Shown here: in pieces, positions 28,471-33,196 of the stretch
How positions within the stretch are numbered: the stretch's first letter is position 1
How the letters are laid out: each line of letters opens with the position of its first letter
Source of the DNA: Amycolatopsis nigrescens CSC17Ta-90
GTDB taxonomy: Bacteria; Actinomycetota; Actinomycetes; Mycobacteriales; Pseudonocardiaceae
Assembly (NCBI RefSeq): GCF_000384315.1
Contig: NZ_ARVW01000001.1
Location: forward strand, 2,737,746-2,801,745
Reading direction: 5' to 3'
Length of the DNA stretch: 64,000 nt
Made by a program: the position numbers and the translations under genes
The notes under the pieces: generated by a model
The model's database searches: none
Told to the model about the DNA's origin: nothing
Seen by the model: the letters and a program-made list of their open reading frames with translations, nothing else

Positions 28471-28498
28471 TCCCCGGTCCACGCGGTCGGGCGTGTCG
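28471..28498 (-). promoter_or_regulatory. Leader element upstream of rpsJ shared with the rpsL leader
   Basis: A 28-nt block about 100-126 nt before the rpsJ start is identical at 27 of 28 positions to 33169-33196 upstream of rpsL, same orientation. On the transcribed strand it contains ACACGCCCGACCGCG. Such conservation outside coding sequence, in two ribosomal leaders, suggests an RNA or DNA control site. Confidence 0.7.
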
Positions 28499-28646
28499 CG
28501 CCCGCCGCACAGACGAATCCCTTGGGGGCATCGTCGTGCCTGGTAATCCTCAACTTGAGGGGGTCCGCCGGACCTTGCCCGGTGTTCCCTTGCCCGCGTG
28601 TCCACTCCCCGGAGGGAGAAACTCGACGGACCAAGGCCACTCGCGC

Positions 28647-28682
28647 CGGGGCGGCCAATCTCGAACGAGATCGGCCGCCCCG
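28647..28682 (-). terminator. Hairpin after tuf / at the 5' end of the S10 leader
   Basis: Arms CGGGGCGGCC (28647-28656) and GGCCGCCCCG (28673-28682) enclose an inner 6-bp stem (ATCTCG/CGAGAT). It is the first strong hairpin after the tuf stop, with no T tract. Because a promoter lies just upstream of it, it would also be the first structure of the S10 transcript. Confidence 0.65.
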
Positions 28683-28694
28683 CGACGAGCAACC

Positions 28695-28723
28695 CTAATA
28701 GTCTCGCACACCTAGATTTTCAA
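28695..28723 (-). promoter_or_regulatory. Promoter of the S10 operon
   Basis: On the minus strand TTGAAA (28718-28723) and TATTAG (28695-28700) are separated by exactly 17 nt. This is the best housekeeping promoter I see in the window. Transcription would begin near 28688, immediately before the 28647-28682 hairpin. Confidence 0.75.
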
Positions 28724-28757
28724 GCCGGAACCGGGGGTGTTCACCCCGATTTCCGAG

Positions 28758-30120: not shown

Positions 30121-32217
30121 TTACTCGCCCGTCGCCTTCGCGATGATCTCCTTCGCGACGTTCGCGGGAACCTCCGCGTAGGAGTCGAACTGCATGGAGT
30201 AGTTCGCACGACCCTGGGTACGAGACCGCAGATCGCCGACGTAACCGAACATCTCCGACAGCGGAACCAGAGCCTTCACAATTCGGGTTCCGGCACGCTC
30301 CTCCATGGCCTGAATCTGACCACGGCGGGAGTTGAGGTCGCCGATGACATCACCCATGTAGTCCTCGGGTGTGGTCACCTCGACCGCCATCAGCGGTTCC
30401 AGAATTACCGGGCCCGCCTTCTTCGCGGCTTCCTTCAACGCGATCGAACCCGCGATCTTGAAAGCCATTTCCGAAGAGTCGACCTCGTGGTACGCACCGT
30501 CCAACAGGGTCAGCTTCAACCCGACGAGCGGGTAGCCGGCCAGCACGCCGTACTGCATGGCGTCCTGCGCGCCCGCGTCCACCGAGGGGATGTACTCCCG
30601 GGGGATGCGGCCACCGGTGACCTTGTTGTCGAACTCGTACATGGCACCGTCGGCCGTGTCGAGCGGCTCCAGCTTGATGATCACCTTGGCGAACTGACCG
30701 GAGCCACCGGTCTGCTTCTTGTGCACGTAGTCGAGCTTGTCGACCGTCTTCTTGATCGTCTCGCGGTAGGCGACCTGCGGCTTGCCGATGTTCGCCTCGA
30801 CCTTGTAGTCGGACTTCATCCGGTTCACCAGCACCTCGAGGTGCAGCTCGCCCATGCCCGCGATGATCGTCTGCCCGGTCTCTTCATCCTGGTTGACCTG
30901 GAAGGTGGGGTCCTCCTCGGCCAGCTTCTGGATGGCGATCGACAGCTTTTCCTGATCGGCCTTCGTCTTCGGCTCGATCGCGACCCGGATGACCGGCTCG
31001 GGGAACGTCATCGACTCGAGCACGATCGGGTTCTGCGGGTCGGCCAGCGTGTCACCGGTGGTGGTGTCCTTGAGGCCCTGCACCGCGTAGATGTGGCCGG
31101 CCTGGCCGACCTCGACCGGGTTCTCCTTGTTGGAGTGCATCTGGAAGAGGCCGCCGATGCGCTCCTTCCGCTCCTTGGTCGCGTTCACGACCTGGGCGCC
31201 CTTGGCGACCTGTCCGGAGTAGACCCGGATGTAGGTCAGCTTGCCGAAGAACGGGTGCGCCGCGATCTTGAACGCGAGCGCCGCGAACGGCTCCTCGGTG
31301 GACGGCTTGCGCTGCGCGGTCTCCTCGTTGGGCAGGATGCCCTCCACCGCGGGCACGTCGAGCGGCGACGGCAGGTACTCGATCACCGCGTCGAGCATGG
31401 GCTGGACGCCCTTGTTCTTGAACGCGGAGCCGGCGAGCACCGGGTACGCCATGCGCTCCACGGTCAGCTTCCGGATACCGGCCTTGATCTCGGCCTCGGT
31501 CAGCGCCTCGCCCTCGAGGAACTTCTCCATCAGCGCGTCATCGGTCTCGGCGACGGCTTCGAGCAGCTTCTCCCGGTACTCCGCGGCCTTGTCCGCGAGG
31601 TCGGCCGGGATGTCCTCGACCGCGTAGTCCTCGCCCTTCTGGACTTCGCCGCGCCAGACGAGCGCCTTCATCCGGACCAGGTCGACGACGCCCTCGAAGG
31701 CGTTCTCGGCACCGATCGGCAGCTGGATGACCAGCGGACGGACACCGAGGCGGTCTTCGATGGTCTTCACCGTGAAGTAGAAGTCCGCGCCCAGCTTGTC
31801 CATCTTGTTGACGAAGCAGATCCGGGGGACCTCGTACTTGTCGGCCTGACGCCAGACCTGCTCGGACTGCGGCTCGACGCCTTCCTTGCCGTCGAAGACG
31901 GCCACCGCACCGTCGAGCACCCGTAGGTTGCGCTCCACCTCGACGGTGAAGTCGACGTGGCCGGGGGTGTCGATGATGTTCAGCTGGTGGTCGGCCCAGA
32001 AGGTGGTGGTGGCAGCCGAGGTGATGGTGATACCCCGCTTCTGCTCCTCCTCCATCCAGTCCATCGTGGCGGCGCCGTCGTGGACTTCACCGATCTTGTA
32101 GTTGACCCCGGTGTAGAACAGGATCCGCTCGGTGGTTGTGGTTTTACCGGCATCGATGTGCGCCATGATGCCGAAATTGCGGACCATGTTCAGGTCGGTC
32201 AGCACGTCACGTGCCAC
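30121..32217 (-). CDS. fusA: Elongation factor G
   Basis: EF-G drives ribosomal translocation. I chose the GTG at 32215-32217 (MARDVLTDLNMVRNFGIMAH), with AGGGGA 8 nt upstream, giving 698 residues. GTPase motifs AHIDAGKTTTTERIL and DTPGHVDFTVEVERNLRVLD are intact, and domains II-V follow. It is the only EF-G in the window. Confidence 0.98.
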   Translation of the reverse strand: MARDVLTDLNMVRNFGIMAHIDAGKTTTTERILFYTGVNYKIGEVHDGAATMDWMEEEQKRGITITSAATTTFWADHQLNIIDTPGHVDFTVEVERNLRVLDGAVAVFDGKEGVEPQSEQVWRQADKYEVPRICFVNKMDKLGADFYFTVKTIEDRLGVRPLVIQLPIGAENAFEGVVDLVRMKALVWRGEVQKGEDYAVEDIPADLADKAAEYREKLLEAVAETDDALMEKFLEGEALTEAEIKAGIRKLTVERMAYPVLAGSAFKNKGVQPMLDAVIEYLPSPLDVPAVEGILPNEETAQRKPSTEEPFAALAFKIAAHPFFGKLTYIRVYSGQVAKGAQVVNATKERKERIGGLFQMHSNKENPVEVGQAGHIYAVQGLKDTTTGDTLADPQNPIVLESMTFPEPVIRVAIEPKTKADQEKLSIAIQKLAEEDPTFQVNQDEETGQTIIAGMGELHLEVLVNRMKSDYKVEANIGKPQVAYRETIKKTVDKLDYVHKKQTGGSGQFAKVIIKLEPLDTADGAMYEFDNKVTGGRIPREYIPSVDAGAQDAMQYGVLAGYPLVGLKLTLLDGAYHEVDSSEMAFKIAGSIALKEAAKKAGPVILEPLMAVEVTTPEDYMGDVIGDLNSRRGQIQAMEERAGTRIVKALVPLSEMFGYVGDLRSRTQGRANYSMQFDSYAEVPANVAKEIIAKATGE

Positions 32218-32277
32218 GAGAGTGTTCCCCTGTCTCAAACGTGGGGCCCGGCGTCGTTATCGCCTGCCGGGCAATGA

Positions 32278-32748
32278 TCACCAGCGGTAGTGCGCGAAGG
32301 CCTTGTTGGACTCGGCCATCTTGTGCGTGTCCTCGCGGCGCTTCACGCTCGCCCCGAGGCCGTTGCTCGCGTCGAGCAGCTCGTTCTGCAGTCGCTCGAT
32401 CATGGTCTTCTCGCGGCGGGCCTGCGAGAAGGACACCAGCCAGCGCAGCGCAAGGGTCGTCGAGCGGCCGGGCTTGACCTCGATCGGCACCTGGTAGGTG
32501 GCACCACCGACACGGCGGCTCTTCACCTCGATGGTGGGCTTCACGTTGTCAAGTGCGCGCTTCAGCGTGACGACCGGGTCGGTGCCGGTCTTCTCGCGAG
32601 CGCCTTCGAGCGCGCCGTAGACGATGCGCTCGGCCAGGGACCGCTTCCCGTCCTTCAGCACCTTGTTCACCAGCTGGGTGACCAGCGGCGAGGCGTAGAC
32701 GGGGTCGGAGATCAATGGCCGCTTCGGGGCCGGACCCTTGCGGGGCAT
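32278..32748 (-). CDS. rpsG: 30S ribosomal protein S7
   Basis: uS7 nucleates 30S head assembly and contacts the E site. The 156 residues start MPRKGPAPKRPLISDPVYAS and include VKSRRVGGATYQVPIEVKPG. The ATG overlaps the rpsL TAA by one base. Confidence 0.98.
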   Translation of the reverse strand: MPRKGPAPKRPLISDPVYASPLVTQLVNKVLKDGKRSLAERIVYGALEGAREKTGTDPVVTLKRALDNVKPTIEVKSRRVGGATYQVPIEVKPGRSTTLALRWLVSFSQARREKTMIERLQNELLDASNGLGASVKRREDTHKMAESNKAFAHYRW

Positions 32749-33122
32749 TAGCTCTTCTCCTTCTTCGCGCCGTACCGGCTGCGCGCCTGCTTGCGGTTCT
32801 TCACACCCTGGGTGTCGAGCGAGCCGCGAATGATCTTGTAGCGAACACCCGGCAGGTCCTTCACACGACCACCGCGCACGAGCACCATCGAGTGCTCCTG
32901 CAGGTTGTGGCCTTCACCGGGGATGTAGGCGGTGACCTCGATGCCGCTGGTCAGCTTCACACGCGCGACCTTGCGCAGCGCCGAGTTCGGCTTCTTGGGG
33001 GTAGTGGTGTACACGCGAGTGCACACGCCACGCCGCTGCGGGCTCCCCTTGAGGGCCGCGGTCTTCTGCTTGGCAGCCTTGTCCTGGCGGCCCTTGCGGA
33101 CCAGCTGCTGGATCGTGGGCAA
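32748..33122 (-). CDS. rpsL: 30S ribosomal protein S12
   Basis: uS12 monitors decoding. The 124 residues contain TTPKKPNSALRKVARVKLTS and GGRVKDLPGVRYKIIRGSLD. Lys43 and Lys88, the classic streptomycin-resistance positions, are wild type, predicting no target-based streptomycin resistance. It heads the str operon. Confidence 0.98.
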   Translation of the reverse strand: MPTIQQLVRKGRQDKAAKQKTAALKGSPQRRGVCTRVYTTTPKKPNSALRKVARVKLTSGIEVTAYIPGEGHNLQEHSMVLVRGGRVKDLPGVRYKIIRGSLDTQGVKNRKQARSRYGAKKEKS

Positions 33123-33168
33123 TGGACCAGCTTTCTGTCGCGATCTTGCTTGCGTCTACTAGTTCGTC

Positions 33169-33196
33169 TCCCCGGTCCCCGCGGTCGGGCGTGTCG
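33169..33196 (-). promoter_or_regulatory. Leader element upstream of rpsL shared with the rpsJ leader
   Basis: This 28-nt block lies 47-74 nt before the rpsL ATG and matches the rpsJ-leader block (28471-28498) at 27 of 28 positions, same strand. A second common stretch, CCGGGGCGGCCAA, lies further upstream in both leaders (33375-33387 and 28646-28658). Confidence 0.7.

What the first reader, a model, noticed from the sequence alone, without database searches (positions are those of the whole stretch)
28471..33196. A 28-nt leader element shared by rpsJ and rpsL
28471-28498 and 33169-33196 match at 27 of 28 positions on the same strand, each in the 5' region of the first gene of a ribosomal operon. 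A second 13-nt match occurs near the promoter end of both leaders. The two otherwise unrelated leaders seem to carry a common control element, perhaps for coordinate regulation by a ribosomal protein or antitermination factor.
Basis: seen in the sequence. Interest (0 to 1): 0.75.

Follow-up and report, generated by a model that had tools for sequence, protein, structure and literature searches.

The report
Shared WhiA-like site before ribosomal operons
A 25-base sequence sits ahead of two ribosomal-protein operons across one large class of bacteria and most likely marks a DNA site where the regulator WhiA binds, which would link a regulator best known from sporulation to ribosome production.

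Summary
The match is real: 27 of 28 bases at the stated places, minus strand, 126 and 74 nt before the rpsJ and rpsL start codons. It is a class-wide element, roughly CGACACRCCCGASCKCGKGGGTCGG. A 20-mer pattern with one mismatch allowed occurs in 109 of 118 sampled class genomes, against 11 of 118 for the reversed pattern. In 10 genomes scanned with a sequence model the strong matches are one rpsJ and one rpsL copy each. No Rfam family covers it. RNA structure is at best weakly indicated and rRNA mimicry was not found. GACACRCC fits the WhiA motif GAYACRCY. A published S. venezuelae WhiA ChIP peak lies 75 bp before rpsJ; the element's midpoint lies 72-77 bp before rpsJ in 7 of 7 Streptomyces-type copies. 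Best reading: a WhiA DNA site inside the transcribed leader. Against it: distance from predicted promoters, and a genus with AACAC but no matching WhiA change. WhiA at rpsJ is already published; the rpsL copy, the 20-25 bp extent and the two-per-genome pattern were not found in the papers searched. The RNA/antitermination reading is not supported but not excluded.

The parts
28474..28498 (-). rpsJ copy of the 25-bp element, CGACACGCCCGACCGCGTGGACCGG
   Evidence: class-wide conservation
33172..33196 (-). rpsL copy of the 25-bp element, CGACACGCCCGACCGCGGGGACCGG
   Evidence: class-wide conservation
28490..28497 (-). GACACGCC, fits WhiA core GAYACRCY (rpsJ copy)
   Evidence: motif from PMC11701221
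33188..33195 (-). GACACGCC, fits WhiA core GAYACRCY (rpsL copy)
   Evidence: motif from PMC11701221
28067..28372 (-). rpsJ (S10), first gene of the S10 operon; start codon placed at 28372
32748..33122 (-). rpsL (S12), first gene of the str operon, TTG start
33358..33387 (-). predicted rpsL promoter TTGGCC-N18-TATCTT; would place the element about 155 nt downstream of the transcription start (inference)

Best explanation
The element is a DNA-binding site for WhiA, a regulator made of a LAGLIDADG homing-endonuclease-like part and a helix-turn-helix (HTH). I infer that the HTH reads GACACRCC and that the LAGLIDADG part reads the following CCCG-N4-CGKG(G). WhiA bound inside the transcribed leader would adjust transcription of the S10 and str operons together, tying ribosomal-protein supply to a cell-state signal. 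Shown here: conservation, near-exclusivity to rpsJ and rpsL, core match, position, and an intact whiA gene. Published for rpsJ: WhiA occupancy in S. venezuelae, where rpsJ is down in a whiA mutant, and repression plus ATP sensing in Mycoplasma gallisepticum. Inferred: WhiA at rpsL, WhiA at these sites in this organism, which domain reads which half, and the mode and direction of the effect.
For: (1) Core GACACRCC equals the reported GAYACRCY; GACAC is kept in 57 of 58 aligned distinct elements. (2) S. venezuelae WhiA ChIP-seq lists rpsJ with a peak 75 bp from its start codon, vegetative P 4.5e-11 and mid-sporulation 8.0e-6. (3) In Mollicutes WhiA binds GATACACC downstream of the rpsJ transcription start as a two-part site; here too promoter-like sequences lie upstream of the element in 71 of 131 leaders and overlap or follow it in 1 of 131, opposite-strand control 0 and 0. 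(4) whiA is in 112 of 118 class genomes and 99 of 100 good ones, and intact with its three Pfam domains in this genome. (5) Conservation is mainly of sequence. (6) Searching both strands, the model finds only the two leader copies as strong matches in 10 genomes, so no long complement elsewhere; a short complement is not excluded.
Against: The element lies 46-176 nt (median 112) downstream of the predicted start at rpsL, in the 40 of 56 leaders with a strict promoter match, and 225-289 nt at rpsJ in 6 of 38; promoter occlusion is then unlikely, and the Mycoplasma study found only a very weak effect on elongation. All six genomes of genus g28 read CAACAC instead of CGACAC, keep the rest, and show no g28-only change in the WhiA HTH. 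In two Streptomyces-type genomes infA and rpsH, also WhiA ChIP targets, lack the extended element; one infA has a reversed GTGTC at 183 nt and both rpsH a reversed GGCGTGTC. Outside the class the core was within 300 nt of rpsJ in 1 of 16 whiA-bearing genomes, that one in tuf coding sequence, and 0 of 12 without whiA. whiA is nearly universal in the class, so co-occurrence there tests nothing. Among 26 loci with both leaders 10 have both copies, 11 one, 5 neither. Direction differs between sources: lower rpsJ expression in a Streptomyces whiA mutant, repression in Mycoplasma. rpsL as a ChIP target was not seen; Table S1 could not be read. Pairing signal upstream of the core.
Confidence: 0.66

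Rival explanations
1. A cis-acting RNA element in the two leaders, bound by a protein (ribosomal protein or other) or acting on elongating RNA polymerase (attenuation or antitermination).
For: The element appears to be transcribed and is in sense orientation: 87 of 90 pattern-selected loci have rpsL or rpsJ within 500 nt downstream on the same strand. Genus g28 keeps CCGACC...GGTCGG whole while losing the WhiA core G. For a small stem formed with the bases just upstream (loop CGACA), 8 cells are changed on both sides (39 of 500 shuffles as high), positions -2 and -1 each share information with position 6 (0 of 1000 shuffles as high), and pairing exceeds most re-matchings between sequences (14 of 2000 as high).
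Against: RNAalifold predicts 0 pairs. CCCG/CGKG has 12 of 58 uncompensated mismatches and 0 pairs changed on both sides. CCGASC/GGTCGG is 75.3% paired, covariation reached by 433 of 500 shuffles. The upstream stem is only 56.2% paired, and relatedness can produce its signal. Folding z-scores -0.45 and -0.25. rRNA match at best 17 of 25, as in shuffled elements. No Rfam match.
Confidence: 0.2
2. A DNA site for another conserved actinomycete DNA-binding protein, the GACAC match being chance.
For: The core's first G is not kept in genus g28; the S. venezuelae study found no sequence beyond GACAC in WhiA targets. By my own arithmetic, not from a call, a random 25-mer holds GAYACRCY in either direction about 0.4% of the time.
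Against: The published rpsJ ChIP peak coincides with the element position.
Confidence: 0.1
3. A short upstream coding sequence, or a chance or recently copied repeat.
For: Some leaders have ATG or GTG just before the element.
Against: Variable positions 6, 12, 14, 17, 21 do not share one codon phase. 109 of 118 genomes carry the pattern, against 11 of 118 for the reversed one.
Confidence: 0.03

Closest known systems
WhiA site ahead of the rpsJ operon in Mycoplasma gallisepticum and other Mollicutes (PMC11701221)
   Same: GAYACRCY core, rpsJ operon, downstream of the transcription start, second motif downstream of the core
   Different: Here a GC-rich 20-25 bp sequence, a second copy at rpsL, and a larger distance from the predicted start. 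The word rpsL does not occur in that paper's main text; its supplement was not seen.
WhiA regulon of Streptomyces venezuelae (PMC3781837)
   Same: GACAC motif; rpsJ is a listed target at 75 bp
   Different: That work reports no sequence beyond GACAC, and rpsL does not occur in its main text. infA and rpsH lack the extended element in two Streptomyces-type genomes.
Structured ribosomal-protein leaders (PMC7247131; Rfam)
   Same: Position ahead of ribosomal operons, idea of shared control
   Different: No covarying structure found, no Rfam match. The word rpsJ does not occur in the main text of PMC7247131 (passages only).

Membership tests
WhiA-binding site | GACAC / GAYACRCY core | tested here: met
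   GACACGCC in both window copies; GACAC in 57 of 58 aligned elements; genus g28 has AACAC
WhiA-binding site | Occupancy by WhiA in vivo | tested here: inconclusive
   Published rpsJ peak at 75 bp in S. venezuelae coincides with the position in 7 of 7 copies from other Streptomyces-type genomes; nothing for rpsL or for this organism
WhiA-binding site | Footprint of about 20 bp by purified WhiA | not testable with these tools
   needs protein; feature described
WhiA-binding site | Intact whiA in the genome | tested here: met
Structured r-protein leader RNA | Covarying secondary structure | tested here: not met
   a weak upstream signal remains
Structured r-protein leader RNA | Match to an existing Rfam family | tested here: not met
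Structured r-protein leader RNA | Resemblance to the rRNA site of the ligand | tested here: not met
   sequence only
Nus-type (boxA) antitermination site | boxA sequence | tested here: not met
   By inspection the consensus has no boxA-like T-rich run (boxA recalled, not from a call)

The most novel reading that the evidence does not exclude
WhiA's original job in this class is to control ribosome production through two two-part sites per genome, at rpsL and rpsJ. Its homing-endonuclease-like domain still reads DNA there: CCCG-N4-CGKG is a pair of half-sites around a variable centre, the layout of LAGLIDADG targets (recalled). WhiA could then hold these sites without its partner WhiB, unlike the promoters where WhiA and WhiB were reported to need each other (which argues against this unless rpsJ differs), and act from within the transcribed leader.
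Probability: 0.38. Interest if true: 0.85.

Novelty: new variant of a known kind. Interest (0 to 1): 0.66.

Why it matters
WhiA is in 112 of 118 sampled genomes of the class, and the element is found in named genera such as Mycolicibacterium, Gordonia and Arthrobacter, which are not sporulation models (recalled). A 20-25 bp element found in ten genomes only at rpsL and rpsJ gives a precise, testable candidate target for WhiA and a way to ask how the S10 and str operons are co-regulated in Actinobacteria. It also offers a natural DNA substrate for testing whether WhiA's homing-endonuclease-like domain reads sequence. If WhiA does not bind it, a class-wide leader element absent from Rfam is left without a ligand.

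Tried and rejected
Rfam at both thresholds: nothing relevant; the low-E microRNA match is the hairpin after tuf, a likely terminator. Promoter reading (GACAC as a -35): no -10 at the right distance in general; the one overlapping or following match in 131 leaders is the extra copy L060:14567, TTGACG-N18-TAGAGT. Coding reading: variable positions share no codon phase. rRNA mimicry: none by sequence (the loci searched include flanks of the rRNA genes). Trans-acting complementary RNA: no strong match beyond the two leader copies on either strand in 10 genomes. Other classes: 13 genomes outside the class gave 15 weak model matches; I examined one locus for each of the 13 and none holds rpsL or rpsJ. 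The exact 15-mer at 8580700 lies in a sequence that reads by eye as WhiB-like coding DNA; the near-match in fusA encodes DTPGHVD. Both taken as chance. Core upstream of rpsJ outside the class: not found. Sequence of WhiA's HTH following the g28 base change: not found.

Counting notes. One search dropped copies with mismatches and no rpsL or rpsJ downstream before giving 131 of 132, so I use (87 of 90; misses L116, L134, L182). Those 90 are 30 loci returned plus 60 that I chose from its listed places; one search did not list all its matches. The ten genomes were chosen by me and most supplied copies to model R1, the window's own among them. L069 was dropped because its leader is cut off. One search left out two loci with under 120 nt upstream. 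Of the six g28 copies, two were tied to rpsL by tblastn and four by the start-codon context only. Family f20 as Streptomyces is my inference.
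Full report
The observation. The window carries a minus-strand str and S10 region; its RpsL is 99% identical to that of a Saccharothrix record, so I take the class to be Actinomycetes. Reading the minus strand, CGACACGCCCGACCGCG[T/G]GGACCGGGGA occurs at 28471-28498 and 33169-33196, matching at 27 of 28 positions. No third copy with up to 3 mismatches is in the window. The copies begin 126 nt before the rpsJ start codon and 74 nt before the rpsL start codon. In the whole 9.1 Mb genome a sequence model finds these two at E 7.1e-6 and 1.3e-5 and the next match at E 0.57; both copies were among the model's training sequences.

Conservation. A degenerate 20-mer with one mismatch allowed occurs in 109 of 118 class genomes and in 94 of 100 good ones; the same pattern read backwards occurs in 11 of 118. 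Of 90 pattern-selected loci, 87 have rpsL or rpsJ within 500 nt downstream on the same strand. In loci found through RpsL alone, window included, 27 of 44 rpsL leaders and 16 of 26 rpsJ leaders have it; leaving out three records titled as other classes this is 27 of 41 and 16 of 24. Of the 26 loci with both leaders, 10 have both copies, 5 only rpsL, 6 only rpsJ and 5 neither; the five are two Acidimicrobiia records and three of Frigoribacterium or Rhodoglobus. The block is 25 positions long, its last five less constant, and the flanks are near random except for G at -3 and -1.

Specificity. In ten genomes searched with model R1 the 20 matches at E 0.0104 or better are one rpsJ and one rpsL copy per genome, and the next-best match of each genome lies by neither gene. 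In a sample of 149 phylum genomes, 12 class genomes match; 13 genomes outside the class have weak matches (E 6e-4 to 0.0098), and the one locus examined for each lies by neither gene. How many class genomes that sample held without a match was not listed. The element looks like a feature of the class.

RNA or DNA. A hairpin CCCG/CGKG has 12 of 58 uncompensated mismatches and no pair changed on both sides. CCGASC/GGTCGG is paired in 75.3% of cells and its covariation score is reached by 433 of 500 shuffles. RNAalifold predicts no pairs, and the window leaders fold no better than shuffles. A stem with the bases just upstream, loop CGACA, is paired in 56.2% of cells, with a both-sides-changed count reached by 39 of 500 shuffles. 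Positions -2 and -1 share information with position 6 (0 of 1000 shuffles as high), and pairing exceeds most re-matchings between sequences (14 of 2000 as high). This is the best sign of RNA structure; relatedness can produce it, and I did not correct for that. Neither 16S nor 23S resembles the element more than it does shuffled elements.

WhiA. GACACRCC fits the GAYACRCY core that WhiA of Mycoplasma gallisepticum binds ahead of its rpsJ operon. Those authors say the core is conserved upstream of rpsJ in most whiA-bearing species of several clades, Actinobacteria among those named (PMC11701221: abstract, sections 20, 23, 24, part 1 of section 27 and passages, section 18 among them). Their site lies mostly 22-40 nt downstream of the transcription start and has a second motif bound by the homing-endonuclease-like domain. 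In S. venezuelae, WhiA ChIP-seq lists rpsJ with a peak 75 bp from the start codon, significant in vegetative and mid-sporulation samples (PMC3781837: section 8 read, passages elsewhere); that study reports the translation targets as down in a whiA mutant. In 7 of 7 rpsJ copies, one from S. canus and six from Streptomyces-type genomes, the element's midpoint is 72-77 bp from the start codon. This genome has an intact 328-residue WhiA with N-terminal, LAGLIDADG and HTH domains. PDB chains 8dy7_I and 8dy9_I, named WhiA, match it closely; that they come from an RNA polymerase-WhiB complex is recalled. A companion study says WhiA and WhiB need each other to bind their target promoters in vivo; neither rpsJ nor ribosomal occurs in its main text (PMC4850268, passages).

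Position. Promoter-like sequences lie upstream of the element in 71 of 131 leaders, 0 on the opposite strand. By a stricter pattern, TTGACN-N15..19-TANNNT, 40 of 56 rpsL leaders have one, 0 of 56 on the opposite strand, placing the element 46-176 nt (median 112) into the transcript; at rpsJ only 6 of 38 have one, at 225-289 nt, five of them Streptomyces-type. In this window TTGGCC-N18-TATCTT at 33358-33387 would put the rpsL copy about 155 nt into the leader. No rpsJ promoter was recognised here. Transcription starts were predicted, not measured.

Results against the WhiA reading. The six sampled genomes of genus g28 have CAACAC with the rest of the 25-mer intact in AT-rich leaders, while their WhiA HTH shows no g28-only change. 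infA and rpsH, also WhiA ChIP targets, lack the extended element in two Streptomyces-type genomes; reversed GTGTC occurs at 183 nt in one infA and GGCGTGTC about 170 nt before both rpsH. In 16 whiA-bearing genomes of other classes the core is within 300 nt upstream of rpsJ once, inside tuf. The distance from promoters makes occlusion unlikely.

Judgement. I put 0.66 on a WhiA DNA site, 0.2 on an RNA element, 0.1 on another DNA-binding protein. WhiA at rpsJ is already in print. The rpsL copy, the extended motif and the two-per-genome pattern were not found in paper searches, which cover only openly licensed papers, and supplements could not be read.

Noticed in passing
L063:7671, L068:16719, L070:16798, L071:16642: Four loci titled Agromyces, Frigoribacterium and Rhodoglobus share CGACACGCCCGGGTTGC 350-420 nt before rpsJ, next to what reads by eye as a promoter; a second core copy far upstream.
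   Followed up: partly
L060:14567: An extra copy of the element overlaps a TTGACG-N18-TAGAGT promoter-like sequence, 258 nt upstream of the leader copy at 14825.
   Followed up: partly
L043, L046, L048, rpsJ leaders: Three leaders lacking the element share a different block with an inverted repeat (CGTGATCT...AGATCACG or close to it) and a conserved stretch before the start codon.
   Followed up: no
rpsL leaders of L035, L037, L039, L040, L042, L143, L146, L148, L149, L152, L154, L155: A second conserved block (TTGTGCCTGGGGTGTGCC, small changes in L154) lies just after the predicted rpsL promoter.
   Followed up: no
window 28635-28694, minus strand: Long near-perfect hairpin between tuf and rpsJ, a likely tuf terminator; gives a sub-threshold microRNA match in Rfam.
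   Followed up: partly
L187, L188, L280-L283: Genus g28 keeps the GC-rich 25-mer in AT-rich leaders with one fixed G-to-A change in the core.
   Followed up: yes
genomes G118-G147, outside the class: whiA was not found in 12 of 30 sampled genomes of other classes of the phylum.
   Followed up: partly
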